Source: Bacilli bacterium (GTDB lineage: Bacteria > Bacillota_I > Bacilli_A > RF39 > UBA660). From it: DNA of 44,140 nucleotides. The position numbers and the translations under genes are program-made. The notes below the pieces were generated by a model. It saw nothing but the letters and a program-made list of their open reading frames with translations. It did no database searches and was not told the origin of the DNA. Shown here one piece after another: positions 3,411 to 42,892 of the stretch (position 1 is its first letter; the number at the start of each line of letters is the position of its first letter). The stretch spans positions 1-44,140 of the forward strand of contig JAFZKH010000002.1 in assembly GCA_017553685.1 (NCBI GenBank). Reading direction: 5' to 3'.

Positions 3411-3743
3411 ATGGAAAAAGATGCAACATTTTGTGCTAACTGTGGTTCATCAAATGAAGCAGTTACTAAAGTTGAAACAACAGATAATAATGGTGGTCAA
3501 GTATCAAATGGAATGGCTACTGCAGGTTTTGTTTTATCATTTTTTGTACCAGTATTAGGGTTAATATTCTCAATTATTGGTCTTAATAAAGCAAAATATT
3601 TAAATGGTGCTGGTAAAGGACTTGCTAAAGCTGGTTTAATACTATCAATTATTTGGATGGTATTAGAAGTAATTGCTATTATAATTTATTATGTAGTTAT
3701 TATTGCTGCAGCTGCAGGAATATCTTCTGGATATTATTATTAA
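3411..3743 (+). CDS. Zinc-ribbon DUF4190 membrane protein, probable 5' lesion
   Basis: From the only available ATG the protein is 110 residues: a half zinc ribbon (CANCG), a linker, then two hydrophobic segments of DUF4190 type (ATAGFVLSFFVPVLGLIFSI and a second at about 75-105). The same frame upstream encodes the missing first knuckle, GKFCAKCGSAMEKDATFCANCG read as two parts, from about 3378. The codons between the TAG at 3363 and 3411 contain no ATG, GTG or TTG. A strong AGGAGGT sits at 3364-3370, exactly where a start near 3376 would be expected, but that position reads ATA and is out of frame. The real or ancestral start is therefore near 3376, damaged by a small indel or a sequence error. 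Function unknown; probably a membrane sensor or stability protein. Confidence 0.75.
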   Translation: MEKDATFCANCGSSNEAVTKVETTDNNGGQVSNGMATAGFVLSFFVPVLGLIFSIIGLNKAKYLNGAGKGLAKAGLILSIIWMVLEVIAIIIYYVVIIAAAAGISSGYYY

Positions 3744-3750
3744 GATAGAA

Positions 3751-3780
3751 AAAGATTAAGTTATTCTTAATCTTTTTTTA
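3751..3780 (+). terminator. Intrinsic terminator
   Basis: AAAGATTAAG (3751-3760) pairs with CTTAATCTTT (3766-3775), followed by a T run. The next promoter begins at 3781. Confidence 0.85.
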
Positions 3781-3789
3781 TGTTATAAT
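3781..3789 (+). promoter_or_regulatory. Extended -10 promoter (TGTTATAAT)
   Basis: Directly follows the terminator T run; the ATG of the next gene is at 3806, so the predicted leader is about 10 nt and contains AGGTGAT. Confidence 0.75.
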
Positions 3790-3805
3790 TATTACAGGTG
3801 ATATT

Positions 3806-4135
3806 ATGAAAAAATTTTGTACAATATGTGGAAAACCTATGGATTCAGATGCTACATTTTGCATAGAATGTGGAAATGCAAATAAGGGTGAATATAAATC
3901 AGGAATTCATATTAATGATGATGACATTGAGATTAATAGATTAGCTATTACTGGTGTAGTATTATCATTTATGGTTCCATTTATAGGACTTGGTCTTTCA
4001 ATAGGAGGACTAGTATATGCTAAAAAACATGATGATGCTGGTAAGAAAGCAGCTATTACAGGTATAATTCTTTCAAGTGTATTTATGACACTTTGGTTTG
4101 TATTAAAAGTATTAGCAATAATTTTACAAAAATAA
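3806..4135 (+). CDS. Zinc-ribbon DUF4190 membrane protein (tandem paralogue)
   Basis: 109 residues. A complete N-terminal zinc ribbon (FCTICGKPM and FCIECG, two CxxC knuckles, residues 4-23) is followed by an acidic linker. Two hydrophobic segments follow (about 45-66 and 84-105), with the basic YAKKHDDAGKKAA loop between them typical of DUF4190. It is the paralogue of the preceding gene and shows what that gene's intact N-terminus should look like. AGGTGAT precedes the ATG. The protein is presumably membrane-embedded with the ribbon in the cytoplasm; function unknown. It lies just upstream of the TIR gene but has its own promoter and terminator. Confidence 0.85.
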   Translation: MKKFCTICGKPMDSDATFCIECGNANKGEYKSGIHINDDDIEINRLAITGVVLSFMVPFIGLGLSIGGLVYAKKHDDAGKKAAITGIILSSVFMTLWFVLKVLAIILQK

Positions 4136-4162
4136 AGATTAAGATTTATCTTAATCTTTTTA
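4134..4162 (+). terminator. Intrinsic terminator
   Basis: AAGATTAAGAT pairs with ATCTTAATCTT, followed by TTTT. It is closely similar to the terminator at 3751-3780. Confidence 0.8.
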
Positions 4163-4191: not shown

Positions 4192-6546
4192 ATGGAAGAA
4201 AAGAAATATAAATATGATGCGTTTATTAGTTATAGACATTGTGATTTAGATAAGTTTGTAGCAGAAAATCTACATAAAACATTAGAAAACTATGATTTAC
4301 CTAAAAATGTAAAAGAGAAATTAGGTATTACAGGTAGATCTATTAAAAGAGTATTTAGAGATCAAGATGAATTACCACTTTCAAGTAATTTAGAGGATCC
4401 AATTATTGAAGCTTTAAATAATTCTAAATATTTAATAGTTATTTGTTCACCTAGATTAAAGGATTCTTTATGGTGTAAAAAAGAAATAGAGACATTTAAA
4501 AAGATTAGAGGAAGAGAAAATATTTTTTGTGTATTAATTGAAGGAGAACCATCAGATTCATTTCCTGAAGAGTTATTAGTAGACAAAGGTAGAATAATAG
4601 AACCTTTAGCAGCTGATGTAAGAGGTACTACTAAAAAAGAAGTATTAAAGAAAATTAAAGAAGAAGTACTTAGATTAGTAGCTCCTATGTATAAACTTGA
4701 TTATGATGATTTAAAGCAAAGACATAAACAAAGAGAACATAAAAGAAAAATGATTATAGCATCTTCTATAGCAGCTTTCTTTATATTATTCTCTTTATAT
4801 ACATCTATAATGCTTATTAAGATTAGTACTCAACAAAAAACATTAAAATTGCATCAAGCATTATCTCTTAGTGAAGATTCAATTAAATCACTAAATATTG
4901 ATAGTAGATATGATGCTGTTAAACAAGCATATGAATCATTAACAAAGTTTAATGGTGTTAAAATGCCATATACTTCAGAAGCAGAATATGCTTTAACTGA
5001 AGCTCTTGGTGTATATGATTCTAGTAACTCATATAAGGCTATTTTTGAAATAAAAACTGATGGAGTAGTTGATTATGTTAAGGACTCTAAAACATCTAAA
5101 TATGCCCTTATTTATGATGAATCAGAAAAGATATCTTTATGGGATACTAAGAATCTTAAAAAGGTAAGTGAATATACTGATATACCAGGTACAATAATGG
5201 ATGAATTTACTTTTACTTTTGCAGGTGATGATGTATTTGCTTATATAACTAAAGATAGTAATATAAAAATATTAAGTACTAAAGATGGTAAATTAATCAA
5301 AGAAATAAAAAAAGATGAAGAAGGTTTTATATCTATAAAAGGTACATTTGATGGTAAATATTTAGTATATTTAAATAAGAATAAATTATTTGTATATGAT
5401 GTAAATGAAAATAAAGAAATAGGATCTTATACATGTAAAGAATTCTTTAATGATCAAATATATTTCTCAAATGATTATAAATATGCATTTACTACTACTG
5501 AAGAGAGTTATTATGATTTAAATAATGATAAAGTTACTATGAGAGTAATAGATTTAACTAATCAAAAAGAAGTAGGTAATACTATTGTTAATGCAGGATA
5601 CTTATCAGGAATGGTTGTTAAAGATGATAATGTATTTATGTTATTTAATGATTCAACAGGATTAGACTATACTTTAAAAGCTATATCTTTTAATTATAAG
5701 AATAATAAAGTTAATTGGGAAACTGAAGTAAATGATGTATGGGGTAAATATATTTATAGATCTATTCCAGAAGGTTCTAATCATATACTTGTAGTACATT
5801 CTAATAAATTAGATGTATTAGATGAAAATACAGGTAATATAATTCATTCATTTGATACAAAAAATGAGATAATGGATGTATATGGATTTAGTGATTCAGA
5901 AATCTATTTAACATTTAATACTGATGGTACAGTTAATTATATGGATTTTGAAAAGAAAACTAATATGGAATATTCTTATAGATTTAGATTTAATGTTGAT
6001 AAATATAGTAAAGTTGCTCAAACAGAAAAAGGTTTCTTAATGGTTCCATATAATGATAATAGAGTTATTTGTTATGAACAAAATAATAATGAAAGATTAA
6101 AAGAAATTGATAAAAACTATGATGAAGTTCAAACTAAATTATTAAATTCTTCAGAAGTAAAAGATTTAAAAGAAAAATATAATGTTCAAAATAAGAGTTT
6201 AGTATCTAAAATGTTCTATGATACTAAGAAAGAATTATTATTTGTTTATTATACTAATTATGAGTTATCTATTTATAATACTAAAGATAAAACATTATTA
6301 AATACAATTAAAGATATACATGATGTAGATGCTTATTATGGAAAAGATAAATATGGAAGAATATATGTAGGAGACATATCTTATGTATATATTATTGATA
6401 AAAACTATAATAAAGTAGGTAGAGTTAATAAATTATATACTGTTGATAATGATAAATTAATTATTAAAACAAATGATAAATTATACTCTTTAAATATATA
6501 TACTTTAGATGATTTATTAAAAGAAGCTAAAGAGTATTTAAAATAG
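4192..6546 (+). CDS. Membrane-anchored TIR-domain protein with beta-propeller-like ectodomain
   Basis: 784 residues in three parts. (1) Residues 6-165 form a TIR domain: YDAFISYRH (strand A/box 1), FRDQDELPLSSNL (BB-loop region), LIVICSPR and WCKKEIETF. E98 in WCKKE sits where the catalytic glutamate of NAD-cleaving TIRs lies. (2) After a basic stretch comes one strong TM helix (about 187-209). (3) Some 550 residues follow, rich in beta-strand blocks such as YALIYDESEKISLWDTKN, resembling a WD40-like propeller. The predicted topology is TIR inside, propeller outside. Bacterial TIR domains often hydrolyse NAD or make cyclic ADP-ribose signals, some in antiphage defence. Whether this one is an enzyme, a scaffold or a sensor is inference. 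A two-TM protein gene follows after 9 nt, probably as an operon. Confidence 0.88.
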   Translation: MEEKKYKYDAFISYRHCDLDKFVAENLHKTLENYDLPKNVKEKLGITGRSIKRVFRDQDELPLSSNLEDPIIEALNNSKYLIVICSPRLKDSLWCKKEIETFKKIRGRENIFCVLIEGEPSDSFPEELLVDKGRIIEPLAADVRGTTKKEVLKKIKEEVLRLVAPMYKLDYDDLKQRHKQREHKRKMIIASSIAAFFILFSLYTSIMLIKISTQQKTLKLHQALSLSEDSIKSLNIDSRYDAVKQAYESLTKFNGVKMPYTSEAEYALTEALGVYDSSNSYKAIFEIKTDGVVDYVKDSKTSKYALIYDESEKISLWDTKNLKKVSEYTDIPGTIMDEFTFTFAGDDVFAYITKDSNIKILSTKDGKLIKEIKKDEEGFISIKGTFDGKYLVYLNKNKLFVYDVNENKEIGSYTCKEFFNDQIYFSNDYKYAFTTTEESYYDLNNDKVTMRVIDLTNQKEVGNTIVNAGYLSGMVVKDDNVFMLFNDSTGLDYTLKAISFNYKNNKVNWETEVNDVWGKYIYRSIPEGSNHILVVHSNKLDVLDENTGNIIHSFDTKNEIMDVYGFSDSEIYLTFNTDGTVNYMDFEKKTNMEYSYRFRFNVDKYSKVAQTEKGFLMVPYNDNRVICYEQNNNERLKEIDKNYDEVQTKLLNSSEVKDLKEKYNVQNKSLVSKMFYDTKKELLFVYYTNYELSIYNTKDKTLLNTIKDIHDVDAYYGKDKYGRIYVGDISYVYIIDKNYNKVGRVNKLYTVDNDKLIIKTNDKLYSLNIYTLDDLLKEAKEYLK

Positions 6547-6555
6547 GAGATAAAA

Positions 6556-6852
6556 ATGGAAAAACAAATTAAAACATATAAAATACTTAGAATTATTTTA
6601 ATAATAGCTACTATTATTTTTGGAGTAATAACTATAGTAGATATATTTGTTCCAGATGCTATATTTGCATTAGATGAAGCAGCATTAGCATCTATTACAG
6701 GTTTATTAACATTCTTAATTACTTTTGTAAGTAAAAAAGAAGATGAACTTAAAAATGGTATAAATAATAAAATGGATGCAAAAGATTTAGAGGAATTAAC
6801 TACTAAAGCTACTAAAGCAGCTTCAGCAGTTAAACAATCTAGAAAAAAATAA
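6556..6852 (+). CDS. Small two-TM membrane protein downstream of TIR gene
   Basis: 98 residues: a short basic N-terminus, TM segments at about 8-31 and 43-59, and a charged Lys/Ala/Thr-rich cytoplasmic tail predicted to be helical (AKDLEELTTKATKAASA). I do not recognise the family; the size and topology are holin-like but nothing specific supports that. It begins 9 nt after the TIR stop with AGGAGAT in between, so co-expression with the TIR protein is very likely and it may be its membrane partner. Confidence 0.7.
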   Translation: MEKQIKTYKILRIILIIATIIFGVITIVDIFVPDAIFALDEAALASITGLLTFLITFVSKKEDELKNGINNKMDAKDLEELTTKATKAASAVKQSRKK

Positions 6853-6870: not shown

Positions 6871-7704
6871 ATGAGTAAATATATAGATTCTCATGTTCAT
6901 TCTAAAATAAGTCATGATGGTAAATCACATTTTATTGAACATATGGTAGAAGCCAGAATAAAACACATAGAGGAATTAACATTTACAGAGCATTTTGATG
7001 ATTATACAGGAACAGATTCTATGTTATCTACATTAGATGTAGATAACTATAAGAAAGAATATCTTAGATTTAAAGATGATAGTTTAGTTAAAACTAATTT
7101 TGGTATAGAAATAGGACTTAGACCTGAATCATATGATTTAATAACTACTATGTGTAAAAAACATTCATTTGATTTTATAATAGGATCTTCACATATTACA
7201 TGTGGAAAAGATATGGCATATGATAAATCTTTCTTTGAGGGAATAACTCCTAAAGAGGCCATTATAAAGTATTTTAATGAAGTATTAACTAATATACTAA
7301 CTTATAATGATGAATTTGATGTATATGGTCATTTAGATTATGTTATTAGATATGTAATAAAGAATTATGGTAATTCTATGGATAGAATATCCTATAATGA
7401 GTTTAAAGAATGTTTAGATACAATATTAAATGCTTTAATAAAAAAAGATAAAGGAATAGAAATAAACACATCAGGTATAAGATATGGATTAGGTACTCCT
7501 CATCCAAATATAGAAATAATAAAAAGATATAAAGAACTTGGTGGAAAAATAATTACTATGGGATCTGATGCTCATAGCTTTAAAGATTTAGCAAGTAATT
7601 TTGATGATGCATATGATATATTAGAAGAATCTGGATTTGATGAATTTGCAGTATATCATAATAGAAGACCAAAGTTTATTAAAATAAAAGAAATGAGAAA
7701 ATAG
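6871..7704 (+). CDS. PHP-domain phosphoesterase, HisJ (histidinol-phosphatase)-like
   Basis: 277 residues. PHP metal ligands are visible in order: DSHVHS (H7, H9 region), FTEHFD, EIGL, GSSHI, YGHLDYV and the C-terminal GSDAH. This matches the HisJ/HisK histidinol-phosphatase branch of the PHP family, which hydrolyses phosphate esters with a trinuclear metal centre. No other his genes are nearby, so the enzyme may act in histidine synthesis or, as with many orphan PHP proteins, on another phosphate ester. GGGGGT precedes the ATG, and the gap to the preceding gene is 18 nt. A long hairpin terminator follows. Confidence 0.85.
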   Translation: MSKYIDSHVHSKISHDGKSHFIEHMVEARIKHIEELTFTEHFDDYTGTDSMLSTLDVDNYKKEYLRFKDDSLVKTNFGIEIGLRPESYDLITTMCKKHSFDFIIGSSHITCGKDMAYDKSFFEGITPKEAIIKYFNEVLTNILTYNDEFDVYGHLDYVIRYVIKNYGNSMDRISYNEFKECLDTILNALIKKDKGIEINTSGIRYGLGTPHPNIEIIKRYKELGGKIITMGSDAHSFKDLASNFDDAYDILEESGFDEFAVYHNRRPKFIKIKEMRK

Positions 7705-37149: not shown

Positions 37150-40100
37150 ATGAAAAAGAAGATATTATTATTTATTAGTTTATTATTAATTATGACTAAT
37201 GTTAAGGCATTAACATTTAATGTTAATTTAACAAATATTGAGGATAAAACAAATAGTACATCAGTAGGATCTATAACAAATATAGATGTAGAAAACAAAT
37301 CTTTAGATGTATTATTTCAAGATGAAGGAGAAGAAGTTAGTTTTGAATTAACTATTACTAATACTGGTAATAGAGCAGGTACTTTAAAATCTATAACAGT
37401 AAATTCATCAAGTGATAAGATTGAGTATACTAATGATTTACCAGAAAATGGATTAGCTATTAATGGTAATGATTCAAATGTAGTATTAATTACTGGTAAA
37501 GTTAAAACTGGTGCTACTACAGGCAGAAGTTCTTCACAAATAAAATTAACATATAATTATGAAGAAGGATCATGTCCTGAGGGAGAAATACTTACAGATG
37601 ATGAAACTAAGTGTTTATGTCCTTCTGGAACAGAAAGAAATGAACAAGGTAGATGTGTTACACCTGAAAAAGAAATTACTTGTGCACCAACTGAGTATTA
37701 TAATTCTACTAAGAAAATATGTGAAAAGAAAGAAGTACCAGTTTCACCAAAAACTGGAGATAATATTTTATTAATAATGCTTTTATTTGTTCTAGCAGGA
37801 CTTGCTTTATATGCATTCTTATTCAAGAAATTTAAAACTCAAAAAACAAGAATGACATTTGGTATAGTAACTGCTGTTATTACAGTTTGTGCTTCTGTTT
37901 TAGTATTAATTACATTCTTTGGAGTAGAAGGAATCTTAGGAGCAGTTATTAATCCTATTCAAAAGAATAAAGAAATAGTTATAACAGTAAATGAAGAAAT
38001 AGATAAAGTAGAAGTATGGGATGGAGATTGTGATTTAGATGTTGCAGACTTAACTCCTGCTAATATATTTGAAGGAGGAGTAGGAACTGAATCTAATCCA
38101 TATAAAATTAAAACTGCAAATCAATTAGCATGTTTTGCTAAATCAGTTAATAATGGCGAAACATATGAAGGCAAGTTTATAAAACAAATAAAGAATATTA
38201 AATTAAATAATAATCTTAATGCTCAAGTTACATCTGGTGATTTAAGCAATGCAAATGTATGGACTTCAGCTGGTATATATTTTGATGGACATAATGTTGA
38301 TAATACAAATAAACCTCATTTCTCAGGAACATATGATGGTAATAATTATACAATAGGTGGATTATATCTTACAGATAATAGTTCAGCAATGGCACCTATT
38401 CAAGATGATTGGGGTAATGAATTAAAAGGATTTAATGGCTTATTTGGATATTCATTAAATGCAACATTTAAAAACATGGTATTATCTGATGTATATATGA
38501 ATACTTCAATTCCTACAGGAGCTTTACTTGGATTTGGCTATGAAAATTTAATTTTAGATAATATTACTACTTATGGAAATGCAAACTTCTCAAAATGGGA
38601 TGGAGCAGGTATAGTATCTAATTATAAAGGTAATGATGTTGGTGGTTTGTATATTGAAGATACAACTAATAATATTAATTTAATATGTAATGGTTCTTGT
38701 TCAGGCATAGTTCACAGAATGGAATCTATAAAGAGTTCTCCTGATGAACCAAGTCTATTAGCAAAAAATGTAGTTAATAATGGTAACATCAATTCTACAA
38801 ACGGTTCAGGATGGGGTGGAATTCTTGGATATATTAGTTCATCTAATGCAAACATATATTATGAAAATGTAGGTAATAATGGAGATTTTGAACTTAATAA
38901 TTCATCATCATTAGCAGGTATAAGTGGATATGTTTCTGCACAAAAACTTGTTGTTAAAGATAGTTATAATACAGGTGATTGGAACAATAAGTGGGATGGT
39001 CAATCAGGTGGTTTATTTGGTTCAACATATACACAAGAAATTATTGCAGATAACTTGTTTAACTCAGGTAACTTTACACATGTAGATTCTCATCCTGAAG
39101 GATTACCTCGTAGTCCACAAGGTATTATGTATAATGGGGGTCTTTTTGGATATACAGGTTGGGAAAAAATTACTTTAACAAACTCATATAACACAGGTAA
39201 TATGTCTGCACCATATGCATATGGTTCTGGTTTAATTGCTAATAATTTCAATAGTAATTCATTAATTGAAAATTGTTATAATGTTGGTAATATTACAGGT
39301 GCATCATATACTGGTGGTGTTGTTGGATATTTTAGTGGAACAATTAATAAAGTATATAATAAAGGAAACATTATCAACTTTGGTGGTGCAAGAGTAGGTG
39401 GAATTGTAGGTTATGGTGGTATGCCAAAGATTTATAATTCGTATAATGAAGGAAATATTCTATCTACAGGAGAGAGTTCAAATCAAATAGCTGGTATTTG
39501 TTCATCAGAATGTGGTGAAATTAAGAATGTATATAATAGAGGAAATATAACATCAAAATATGCAGGAGTTAATATTGGTGGACTTGTTGTACAATATTCA
39601 AATGGTAATACTATTAGTAATTCTTATAATTCTGGGACTATTACATTCTTAAATGAACCAAAGCCAAGTGGAAATGATGGATCTGAAACATATATTTCTG
39701 GAATTGCTGATAATAGAAAATCAATTAATACATATAATCTGGGAAATATTGTTGTATATCAAAATGGAGAAAATCATGCTAGAGGATTCCAATTAGCAGG
39801 AATATCTTATAATAATGAAGTAGTAAACTCTGTAAATGCTGGAAATATTACTGTTATTGTAAATAGTCCATATACAAGTAGTAGAACAATGTATATTGGT
39901 GGTATTACTGATTGGACTAAAGCTACCAATTCATTTAATTCAGGTATTATTGAAATTAATGATTCTGCTTTAGAACATCCAATTAGTGAAGATGAATTCA
40001 TTGAATATGGTCATACATATAAACATAGTATTCTTATAGGACAAATTATAGCAACACGTGATCTTTCATCTTCAGGTAATAAGTATAATACTGATCCTAA

Positions 40101-40284
40101 TAAAATGGCATTTGGATGCTATGGATTAAGTGGATGGACAGATTGTTCTTTAGAGCAATCAGAAACTGCAGGAACATATACTACTGAAGCTGCTCCAGAT
40201 ATCTTAAGTATAATTAATGGTGATGATGCATTTGAAATTAAACCTGGTGAGACATTACCAACATTAAAGGTATTTAATAATTAA
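37150..40284 (+). CDS. GLUG-repeat surface protein with internal sorting-signal-like segment
   Basis: 1044 residues. A signal peptide covers residues 1-20, then a beta-sandwich (~25-135) and a Cys-rich EGF-like stretch (~141-191, six Cys). SPKTG (199-203) follows, then a TM helix (205-225) and KKFKTQK, the layout of an LPxTG cell-wall sorting signal. But the protein continues: a second TM (~236-256), then ~780 extracellular residues. These hold many GLUG-like units (GLFGY, GGVVGYF, GGIVGYGG and alternating SYNxGN / VYNxGN strands), a right-handed beta-helix. Both ends would face outside with a cytoplasmic loop of ~10 residues. Likely adhesin or surface protein. Confidence 0.85.
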   Translation: MKKKILLFISLLLIMTNVKALTFNVNLTNIEDKTNSTSVGSITNIDVENKSLDVLFQDEGEEVSFELTITNTGNRAGTLKSITVNSSSDKIEYTNDLPENGLAINGNDSNVVLITGKVKTGATTGRSSSQIKLTYNYEEGSCPEGEILTDDETKCLCPSGTERNEQGRCVTPEKEITCAPTEYYNSTKKICEKKEVPVSPKTGDNILLIMLLFVLAGLALYAFLFKKFKTQKTRMTFGIVTAVITVCASVLVLITFFGVEGILGAVINPIQKNKEIVITVNEEIDKVEVWDGDCDLDVADLTPANIFEGGVGTESNPYKIKTANQLACFAKSVNNGETYEGKFIKQIKNIKLNNNLNAQVTSGDLSNANVWTSAGIYFDGHNVDNTNKPHFSGTYDGNNYTIGGLYLTDNSSAMAPIQDDWGNELKGFNGLFGYSLNATFKNMVLSDVYMNTSIPTGALLGFGYENLILDNITTYGNANFSKWDGAGIVSNYKGNDVGGLYIEDTTNNINLICNGSCSGIVHRMESIKSSPDEPSLLAKNVVNNGNINSTNGSGWGGILGYISSSNANIYYENVGNNGDFELNNSSSLAGISGYVSAQKLVVKDSYNTGDWNNKWDGQSGGLFGSTYTQEIIADNLFNSGNFTHVDSHPEGLPRSPQGIMYNGGLFGYTGWEKITLTNSYNTGNMSAPYAYGSGLIANNFNSNSLIENCYNVGNITGASYTGGVVGYFSGTINKVYNKGNIINFGGARVGGIVGYGGMPKIYNSYNEGNILSTGESSNQIAGICSSECGEIKNVYNRGNITSKYAGVNIGGLVVQYSNGNTISNSYNSGTITFLNEPKPSGNDGSETYISGIADNRKSINTYNLGNIVVYQNGENHARGFQLAGISYNNEVVNSVNAGNITVIVNSPYTSSRTMYIGGITDWTKATNSFNSGIIEINDSALEHPISEDEFIEYGHTYKHSILIGQIIATRDLSSSGNKYNTDPNKMAFGCYGLSGWTDCSLEQSETAGTYTTEAAPDILSIINGDDAFEIKPGETLPTLKVFNN

Positions 40285-40947: not shown

Positions 40948-40978
40948 TCATAATGTGTGAAACTAAAGGAGGATGTAT

Positions 40979-42892
40979 ATGCCTGCAAAATATGATGAAA
41001 GTTCAATAAAAGTATTAGAAGGTTTAGAAGCAGTTAGAAAAAGACCAGGTATGTATATTGGGTCTACTGATAAAAGAGGTTTACATCATTTAGTATGGGA
41101 AATAGTAGATAACTCTATAGACGAAGTAATGAATGGTTATGGAGATACTATTAAGATTACTATTAATAATGATGGATCAATTACAGTAGAAGATAATGGT
41201 AGAGGTGTACCAGTAGGTAAACATGAAACTGGTAAATCTACAGTAGAAGTTATTTATACTATGCTTCATGCTGGTGGTAAATTTGAAGAAGGTAACTATA
41301 AAGTTTCTGGAGGATTACATGGTGTTGGTGCATCTGTTGTTAATGCATTATCTAGTTACATGATAGTTAACTCTAGAAGAGATGGTAAAGAGTACTCTAT
41401 TACATTTAAAAATGGTGGAGAAGTAGATTCTAAATTAAAAGAAGTAGGTAAAACTAATAAAACAGGAACTACTGTAACATTCTTACCTAATAAAGAATTA
41501 TTTACTGCTACAGATTTTTCATATAGTACTATATGTGAAAGAATGCAAGAATCTGCATTCTTACTTAAAGGACTTACAGTAGAAGTAACTGATGATAGAA
41601 ATGGTAGACATGATAAATATCATTATGATAATGGTATTAAATCATTCGTAGAATACATAAATGAGGATAAGACTCCAATAAATAATATACTTCATTTTAA
41701 AGGATCTAAAGATGGTATAGAAGTAGAAATAGCTATGCAATATACTGATTCTTATAATGAAAATATTATTTCATTTGTTAACAATGTTAAAACAATTGAT
41801 GGTGGTTCTCATGAAGTTGGATTTAAGAGTGCTTTAACAAAAGCATTTAATGATTATGCTAGAAAGAATAATTACTTAAAAGCAAAAGATAAAAACTTTG
41901 AAGGTGCAGATGTAAGAGAAGGTTTAACTGCTATTGTATCTTTAAAGATTCCTGAAGCTCTACTTCAATTTGAAGGACAAACTAAAGGAAAATTAGGAAC
42001 TCCAATAGCAAAAACAGTAGTAGAACAAATTACATCTGAGAATCTAGGATTTTACTTAGAGGAAAATAAAGATGGAGCAGTTAATATAATTAATAAAGCT
42101 CTAAAAGGTAAAATGGCTAGAGATGCTGCTAGAAAAGCAAGAGATGATGCTAGAAAGAGTACTGGAACTAAAAAAGAAAAAAATATTTCTGATAAATTGG
42201 CTCCAGCAGCAAGACATGATAATACTAAGAATGAATTATTCATAGTAGAGGGAGATTCTGCTGGTGGATCTGCTAAATCAGGAAGAGATAGAACATATCA
42301 AGCAATACTTCCTTTAAGAGGTAAAGTATTAAATACTGAAAAAGCATCATTAGATGAAGCTTATAAAAATGCTGAAATAAATACTTTAATATATACAATT
42401 GGTGCTGGTGTAGGTGGAGACTTTAATGTAGATAGTTGTAATTATGATAAAGTAATTATCATGACAGATGCTGATGATGATGGATGTCACATTCAAGTAT
42501 TATTAATTACTTTCTTCTATAGATATATGAAACCACTTATTGAGGCAGGTAAATTATATATTGCTTGTCCACCACTTTATAAAGTTAAATTTAGTAAAAA
42601 CGAAGAAATATATGTATATTCTGATGAAGAATTAAAAGAAGTAACTAATGGTAGAAAACCTGAAGATCTTCAAAGATATAAAGGACTTGGTGAAATGGAT
42701 GCTTCTCAACTTTGGGAAACAACTATGGACCCTGCTACTAGAACTCTTATTAGAGTAAATCTTACTGATGCAGTTTTAGCAGAAAAAAGAGTGTCTGTAT
42801 TAATGGGTGAAAAAGTAGAACCAAGAAAAGTATGGATTGAAGAAAACGTAGAATTCTCATTAGAAGATGACTATAAGATAAATGGGGAGTAG
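40979..42892 (+). CDS. parE: DNA topoisomerase IV subunit B
   Basis: 637 residues from ATG 40979. An ATG at 40973 directly abuts AAAGGAGG (40965-40972), leaving no spacing, whereas 40979 has 6 nt. GHKL ATPase motifs (VDNSIDEV, DNGRGVPVG, GLHGVGASVVNA), Toprim EGDSAGGSAKSGRDR and TDADDDG are in place. The C-terminus (RVSVLMGEKVEPRKVWIEEN) and the adjoining parC favour ParE over GyrB. It decatenates daughter chromosomes with ParC. The parC ATG is 9 nt after the stop. Confidence 0.9.
   Translation: MPAKYDESSIKVLEGLEAVRKRPGMYIGSTDKRGLHHLVWEIVDNSIDEVMNGYGDTIKITINNDGSITVEDNGRGVPVGKHETGKSTVEVIYTMLHAGGKFEEGNYKVSGGLHGVGASVVNALSSYMIVNSRRDGKEYSITFKNGGEVDSKLKEVGKTNKTGTTVTFLPNKELFTATDFSYSTICERMQESAFLLKGLTVEVTDDRNGRHDKYHYDNGIKSFVEYINEDKTPINNILHFKGSKDGIEVEIAMQYTDSYNENIISFVNNVKTIDGGSHEVGFKSALTKAFNDYARKNNYLKAKDKNFEGADVREGLTAIVSLKIPEALLQFEGQTKGKLGTPIAKTVVEQITSENLGFYLEENKDGAVNIINKALKGKMARDAARKARDDARKSTGTKKEKNISDKLAPAARHDNTKNELFIVEGDSAGGSAKSGRDRTYQAILPLRGKVLNTEKASLDEAYKNAEINTLIYTIGAGVGGDFNVDSCNYDKVIIMTDADDDGCHIQVLLITFFYRYMKPLIEAGKLYIACPPLYKVKFSKNEEIYVYSDEELKEVTNGRKPEDLQRYKGLGEMDASQLWETTMDPATRTLIRVNLTDAVLAEKRVSVLMGEKVEPRKVWIEENVEFSLEDDYKINGE

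What the first reader, a model, noticed from the sequence alone, without database searches (positions are those of the whole stretch)
4192..6852. Membrane TIR protein with large propeller-like ectodomain plus two-TM partner
The TIR domain retains a Glu (E98) where NADase TIRs have their catalytic residue, but it is tethered to a TM helix and a ~550-residue extracytoplasmic domain. Most known antiphage TIRs are soluble and paired with sensor domains inside the cell. An outside sensor with an inside TIR, co-transcribed with a small two-TM protein, suggests transmembrane signalling or surface-triggered abortive defence. Zinc-ribbon DUF4190 membrane proteins lie just upstream.
Basis: partly seen in the sequence, partly recalled or inferred. 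Interest (0 to 1): 0.6.

Follow-up and report, generated by a model that had tools for sequence, protein, structure and literature searches.

The report
Membrane-tethered bacterial TIR receptor with propeller
This uncultured bacterium carries a gene for a receptor-like protein with an immune-style TIR enzyme domain inside the cell and a propeller-shaped domain outside it, a layout shared by several bacterial phyla for which I found no experimental study; the small neighbouring membrane protein is probably not part of it.

Summary
The 784-aa gene (4192-6546) is real. Residues 11-120 are a TIR domain (Pfam TIR_2, 42 bits, cut-off 28), followed by one TM helix (193-211) with a basic cytoplasmic flank, a helical linker and a WD40-like propeller (VIA Z about 18 over residues 261-595; the rest is low confidence). 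E98 lies in a W-x-x-x-E motif, is invariant in 14 diverse homologues and aligns with the catalytic Glu of plant NADase TIRs. Full-length orthologues occur in 9 of 12 genomes of the genus and in two other genera, single-copy and at several chromosomal sites: a mobile accessory gene. The same TIR-juxtamembrane-TM scaffold carries propellers in another Bacilli family, Butyrivibrio and Fusobacterium, and TPR regions in Sinorhizobium and Novosphingobium. The 98-aa two-TM gene is not a conserved partner: no confident homologue in 7 of 11 TIR genomes, never adjacent elsewhere, two copies in a genome without a TIR match. The TIR is strongly constrained (dN/dS 0.02-0.15); the propeller evolves faster, but no faster than neighbouring envelope proteins. 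Best reading: a one-gene, type II membrane TIR receptor, probably an NAD-consuming defence or stress switch. Activity, trigger and defence role are untested.

The parts
4192..6546 (+). CDS, 784 aa, type II (N-in, C-out) membrane TIR protein
   Evidence: ORF; full-length orthologues at 53-76% identity with no internal stop in the genus and family
4192..4566 (+). TIR domain, residues 1-125 (cytoplasmic)
   Evidence: PF13676 42 bits; AF2 model of residues 1-185 (pLDDT 67, pTM 0.66), best PDB matches are TIRs; dN/dS 0.02-0.15
4483..4485 (+). codon of E98, putative catalytic Glu of the S-x-W-C-x-x-E motif
   Evidence: S92, W94 and E98 invariant in 14 homologues from four taxonomic groups; aligned to the W-C-x-x-E of flax L6/L7 TIR; on helix 89-106 of the model
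4567..4767 (+). juxtamembrane block, residues 126-192 (E-P-L-A-A-D-x-R ... Y-D-D-L-K-Q-R motifs, basic end)
   Evidence: conserved from Bacilli to Fusobacterium, and in part to Alphaproteobacteria
4768..4824 (+). single transmembrane helix, residues 193-211
   Evidence: hydropathy 2.12 over 19 residues, basic N-flank; a TM segment at the equivalent place in every homologue checked
4825..5031 (+). extracytoplasmic helical linker, residues 212-280
   Evidence: 54-83% identical in the genus; helices in the low-confidence model
5032..6543 (+). extracytoplasmic WD40-like beta-propeller region, residues 281-784
   Evidence: weak Pfam propeller hits; model pLDDT 70-88 for about 340-440 and lower elsewhere; Foldseek E to 2.5e-14 against WD40 proteins; VIA Z 15.6-18.2 over 261-595
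4134..4159 (+). terminator-like hairpin followed by a T-rich run, separating the upstream DUF4190 gene from the TIR gene
   Evidence: fold -9.5 kcal/mol, z -3.0; too A+T-rich for the consensus scan, which did not list it
6556..6852 (+). 98-aa two-TM protein; adjacent gene, probably NOT part of the system
   Evidence: 9-bp gap; not conserved next to the TIR gene; SLATT/2TM matches weak, SLATT far below cut-offs
6871..7704 (+). PHP-domain phosphoesterase, next gene in the same run; not part of the system
   Evidence: PF02811 E=6e-24; not next to the TIR gene in relatives

Best explanation
A single-gene, self-contained membrane receptor of type II topology. The N-terminal TIR domain faces the cytoplasm and is probably an NAD+-cleaving enzyme using E98. 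A basic juxtamembrane segment and one TM helix connect it to a helical linker and a WD40-like propeller outside the membrane. A ligand or an envelope change (for example an adsorbing phage, a bacterial competitor or wall damage) would rearrange or cluster the ectodomains, bring TIR domains together as in other TIR NADases, and switch on NAD+ hydrolysis, giving growth arrest or abortive death. Shown by sequence: the domain order, a TM helix with an N-in/C-out charge pattern, invariance of the catalytic-type Glu, strong constraint on the TIR, presence across the genus and in two other genera, several chromosomal sites, and no conserved partner gene. Inferred: enzyme activity, clustering as the trigger, the defence role and the ligand.
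For: Domains and TM. E98, W94 and S92 invariant in 14 homologues. Profile matches to TIRs of known NADases: flax L6/L7, Roq1, RPP1, RUN1, AbTir, Cat1. Prokaryotic TIRs examined need this Glu, and crowding enhances activity (PMC7282519). TIR fold in the domain model. Propeller. dN/dS of the TIR 0.02-0.15, comparable to gyrB 0.07-0.18, so a maintained function. Single copy and patchy: 9 of 12 in the genus, 4 of 193 sampled in the family, 3 of 395 in the class. Several different gene contexts, and the gyrB grouping of G001, G003 and G008 is rejected by the TIR data, AU p=0.016. Same scaffold with propeller or TPR ectodomains in other groups.
Against: No biochemical or phage data exist here. It does not lie in a defence island: neighbours are ordinary metabolic or envelope genes. 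Its PADLOC matches cover the TIR only. Some TIRs are scaffolds without NADase activity. The full-length model is poor (mean pLDDT 51, three sequences). The propeller's faster evolution is not special: neighbouring envelope proteins have dN/dS of 0.52-0.70. Only one of three clade tests on the TIR tree was significant (p 0.016; others 0.14 and 0.48).
Confidence: 0.45

Rival explanations
1. A membrane stress or nutrient sensor whose TIR domain acts as a non-enzymatic assembly module or makes a low-level NAD-derived signal for ordinary regulation, not for defence or death.
For: Lies among metabolic and envelope genes; kept in most members of the genus; TIR domains are most commonly signalling-complex modules (PMC7075850 abstract).
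Against: Catalytic-type Glu and motif fully invariant, no conserved downstream partner gene, patchy distribution and changing sites unlike a core regulator.
Confidence: 0.25
2. A two-gene module: the TIR makes an NAD-derived signal and the 98-aa two-TM protein is a membrane-permeabilising SLATT-like effector, as proposed for TIR-SLATT pairs of Firmicutes phages (PMC9503650).
For: 9-bp gap and same strand; both genes in one locus in three related genomes, and a broken 98-aa-like copy about 4 kb from the TIR gene in another genus; weak 2TM/SLATT matches, E 0.001-0.1.
Against: No confident 98-aa homologue in 7 of 11 TIR genomes; another gene always lies between outside this genome; a genome without a TIR match has two copies; SLATT scores of 12.5-13 bits against cut-offs of 41-100.
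Confidence: 0.1
3. Thoeris-like signalling: the TIR makes a cyclic ADP-ribose isomer read by a ThsA-like SLOG protein elsewhere in the genome.
For: ThsB_TIR passes its Pfam cut-off, 27.7 vs 21.2 bits; up to 4 of 14 homologues match a ThsB model in PADLOC.
Against: No STALD (ThsA SLOG) match in 11 TIR-bearing genomes, though the control genomes had none either, so this is inconclusive; no ThsA next door.
Confidence: 0.08
4. The hydrophobic stretch is not a membrane anchor, or the propeller is inside, and the protein is a cytoplasmic TIR-WD40 sensor.
For: Most WD40-like structural matches are intracellular proteins.
Against: A 19-residue segment of hydropathy 2.12 with a basic N-flank, at the equivalent place in every homologue including distant ones.
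Confidence: 0.08

Closest known systems
Uncharacterised 'toll/interleukin-1 receptor domain-containing proteins' with a C-terminal propeller (Butyrivibrio fibrisolvens WP_167562754.1; Fusobacterium vincentii pSB055A ORF; G073, another Bacilli family)
   Same: TIR, EPLAAD-like and YDDLKQR-like juxtamembrane block, one TM, linker, propeller
   Different: Propeller sequence and length differ (proteins of 814 to 1017 aa); only 13-20% identity in the propeller to Butyrivibrio
Alphaproteobacterial TIR-TM-TPR proteins (Sinorhizobium sp. K101 WP_345774920.1; Novosphingobium sp. RL4)
   Same: TIR with the same Glu and the juxtamembrane A-A-D motif, a TM at the equivalent place
   Different: Ectodomain is a TPR region, not a propeller
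Plant TIR-NLR TIR domains (flax L6/L7, RUN1, RPP1, Roq1)
   Same: FRD-x-DEL and S-x-W-C-x-x-E motifs, best PDB profile match
   Different: Soluble, NBARC-LRR sensor, no membrane anchor (established knowledge)
Animal Toll-like and IL-1 receptors
   Same: Outside sensor, one TM, inside TIR (PMC7075850)
   Different: Reversed order (TIR at the C-terminus, type I); LRR or Ig ectodomains; signal through adaptors
Thoeris ThsB, SpbK, SAVED-TIR (CBASS)
   Same: Bacterial TIRs in defence; weak profile matches restricted to the TIR
   Different: Soluble; no ThsA, SAVED or SpbK-type sensor found here

Membership tests
TIR domain proteins | TIR domain over the curated cut-off | tested here: met
   PF13676 42 bits vs 28, PF01582 22.8 vs 21.3, PF08937 27.7 vs 21.2
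TIR NADases | catalytic Glu on helix C | tested here: met
   E98 aligned with W-C-x-x-E of L6/L7, invariant in 14 homologues, in helix 89-106 of the model
TIR NADases | NAD+ cleavage dependent on that Glu | not testable with these tools
   needs an enzyme assay
Thoeris | ThsA (SIR2-SLOG or TM-SLOG/macro) partner | tested here: inconclusive
   no PF18185 match in 11 genomes, but none in the controls either; none recognised next to the gene
CBASS SAVED-TIR | SAVED domain after the TIR | tested here: not met
   profile matched only at positions 15-136 of 404; the rest is TM plus propeller
SLATT 2TM effectors (for the 98-aa protein) | match to a SLATT model over its cut-off | tested here: not met
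   12.5-13 bits vs cut-offs 41-100
Conserved TIR + 98-aa two-gene system | linkage kept in relatives | tested here: not met
   no confident homologue in 7 of 11 TIR genomes; not adjacent in the other 3; two copies in G462, which had no TIR match
Toll-like receptors | N-terminal ectodomain, C-terminal TIR | tested here: not met
   TIR is N-terminal

The most novel reading that the evidence does not exclude
A widespread but uncharacterised class of bacterial surface receptors that detect something outside the cell with an interchangeable ectodomain (propeller or TPR) and fire an intracellular TIR NADase through a single TM helix: a topologically reversed bacterial counterpart of Toll-like receptors.
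Probability: 0.3. Interest if true: 0.8.

Novelty: new variant of a known kind. Interest (0 to 1): 0.42.

Why it matters
The bacterial TIR systems I know of sense infection inside the cell. If the TIR is active here, extracellular sensing followed by NAD+ depletion would be a testable route to defence before phage DNA entry or to competitor sensing, and a whole class of annotated but apparently unstudied proteins would gain a function.

Tried and rejected
Two-gene TIR/2TM module: tested by linkage and rejected. Fast-evolving propeller as evidence of an arms race: neighbouring envelope proteins evolve as fast, so dropped. Phage or prophage carriage: nothing in 50,697 phage records or two IMG/VR scans. 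Thoeris partner search: inconclusive because no control matched. Empty-site test through the 8469 hydrolase: no relative tested has that gene, so no information. The first gene trees used antisense frames for some loci and were discarded (corrected). Literature searches found no functional study of a TIR-TM-propeller or TIR-TM-TPR protein in the library held; subscription papers are mostly not held, so this is not proof of absence.

Full report
What is there. The ORF at 4192-6546 codes for 784 residues. Pfam finds TIR_2 over residues 11-120 at 42 bits (cut-off 28); ThsB_TIR and TIR also pass, and several propeller families match weakly between residues 274 and 707. A hydropathy scan gives one TM segment, residues 193-211, preceded by 5 K/R and 1 D/E in 15 residues, the usual pattern of an N-in/C-out anchor. 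The TIR is therefore expected inside and the 573 residues after the helix outside. The 98-aa ORF (6556-6852) starts 9 bp after the stop, has two TM segments, and matches SLATT/2TM models only weakly, SLATT far below its cut-offs. An A+T-rich hairpin with a T run at 4134-4159 (-9.5 kcal/mol, z -3.0) probably ends the upstream DUF4190 transcript.

Structure. Foldseek hits are WD40 proteins (E to 2.5e-14) and VIA-align gives Z up to 18.2 (rmsd 4.4 A, 302 residues aligned), most rows spanning model residues 261-595, so a propeller is well supported; the C-terminal third is undetermined. The TIR alone (residues 1-185) gives pLDDT 67 and pTM 0.66; its best PDB matches are TIRs, led by flax L6, with SARM1, RPP1, RUN1 and AbTir in the list. 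E98 is on the helix after strand C. The BB-loop region (48-65) is low confidence, so pocket geometry could not be tested.

Catalytic residues. In 14 homologues from this family, another Bacilli family, Butyrivibrio, Fusobacterium and Alphaproteobacteria, S92, W94 and E98 are invariant, as are R56, D57, E137 and A140-D142. A profile of these sequences matches flax L6/L7 TIR (E=1.3e-7), Roq1, AbTir, Cat1, RPP1 and RUN1 chains, and the W-C-x-x-E motif aligns with that of flax L6/L7. Prokaryotic TIRs examined need this Glu, and crowding stimulates them (PMC7282519). NADase activity is likely, not shown.

Distribution. Full-length orthologues (53-76% identity, no internal stops) occur in 9 of 12 genomes of the genus (own genome included) and one other genus in a sample of 60 relatives, in 4 of 193 family genomes (three genera), and a match over residues 7-322 of the profile in one other family among 395 class genomes. 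Among 14 genomes checked, each has one TIR_2 gene, or none in the three lacking it. Three groups of genomes each share a site: {window, G010, G002} beside DUF4097/DUF4190 genes; {G001, G005, G009} near recG and a pyruvate:ferredoxin oxidoreductase-like gene; {G003, G008} beside a Nudix gene. G007, G024 and G471 each have another context. gyrB groups G001 with G003/G008 (97/96 support), but the TIR data reject this (AU p=0.016); two other tests were not significant (p 0.14 and 0.48). G007 is 96% identical to the window in gyrB but 53% in the TIR protein, although that genome is only 66% complete. The gene behaves as a mobile accessory gene.

A wider class. The Butyrivibrio, Fusobacterium and G073 proteins have the same TIR, juxtamembrane block, TM and propeller; Sinorhizobium and Novosphingobium have a related TIR and TM with TPR ectodomains. 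The architecture is therefore not unique. I found no functional study of it among the papers held; a review mentions TIR proteins with short transmembrane or protein-interaction regions and TIRs fused to repeats (PMC9153377).

Selection. NG86 estimates: TIR residues 1-125 have dN/dS of 0.02-0.15 in five pairs, propeller residues 281-640 have 0.14-0.63 and the last third 0.05-0.32; gyrB has 0.07-0.18. Between the window and its near relatives, DUF4097 and DUF4190 neighbours have 0.52-0.70. So the constraint on the TIR is the informative part; propeller divergence is normal for envelope proteins. No region exceeds 1 except one with a tiny count (TM plus linker, G010/G002, dS 0.017).

The partner gene. 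Homologues of the 98-aa protein are in G010 and G002, one gene away from the TIR gene (an unrelated 438-aa gene in one, a Nudix gene in the other); in G024 as a frameshifted copy about 4 kb away; and twice in G462, which had no TIR match. In the other seven TIR-bearing genomes no match reaches E 0.01. A TIR-SLATT pairing is described for Firmicutes phages (PMC9503650), but membership is not met here. The two-gene idea is rejected with moderate confidence.

How it probably works. The outside propeller senses, the TM helix couples, and the inside TIR cleaves NAD+ when clustered; the outcome is arrest or death. Steps shown: architecture, conservation, mobility. Steps inferred: enzyme activity, clustering, ligand, defence. 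Confidence in the full chain is 0.45; in NADase activity alone about 0.65; in the topology about 0.85 (my estimates).

Novelty. A member of an already visible but apparently unstudied architecture within the TIR family; I file it as a new variant of a known kind.

Noticed in passing
window 6556-6852: 98-aa two-TM protein with the loop motif DIFVPDxIFxLDEAAL; homologues include two copies in a related genome without a TIR match (G462) and a frameshifted copy in G024. Function unknown.
   Followed up: partly
window 3743-3783 and 4134-4159: Similar A+T-rich palindromes (AAGATTAAG...CTTAATCTT plus T run) follow both DUF4190 genes, probably terminators; the G+C-based scan misses them.
   Followed up: partly
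window 3411-4135: Tandem zinc-ribbon-like DUF4190 membrane proteins, two here and three at the same locus in G010 and G002: local duplication of fast-evolving envelope proteins (dN/dS 0.52-0.67).
   Followed up: partly
window 37150-40284: 1044-aa probably exported protein with many degenerate repeats resembling GLUG-type surface repeats and an internal TM pair after residue 200; possible surface protein (by eye only).
   Followed up: no
window 40973-42892: gyrB/parE-type topoisomerase subunit; trees of the two paralogues disagree in this genus (the window's second copy groups with G471, another genus), suggesting recombination or a binning error.
   Followed up: no
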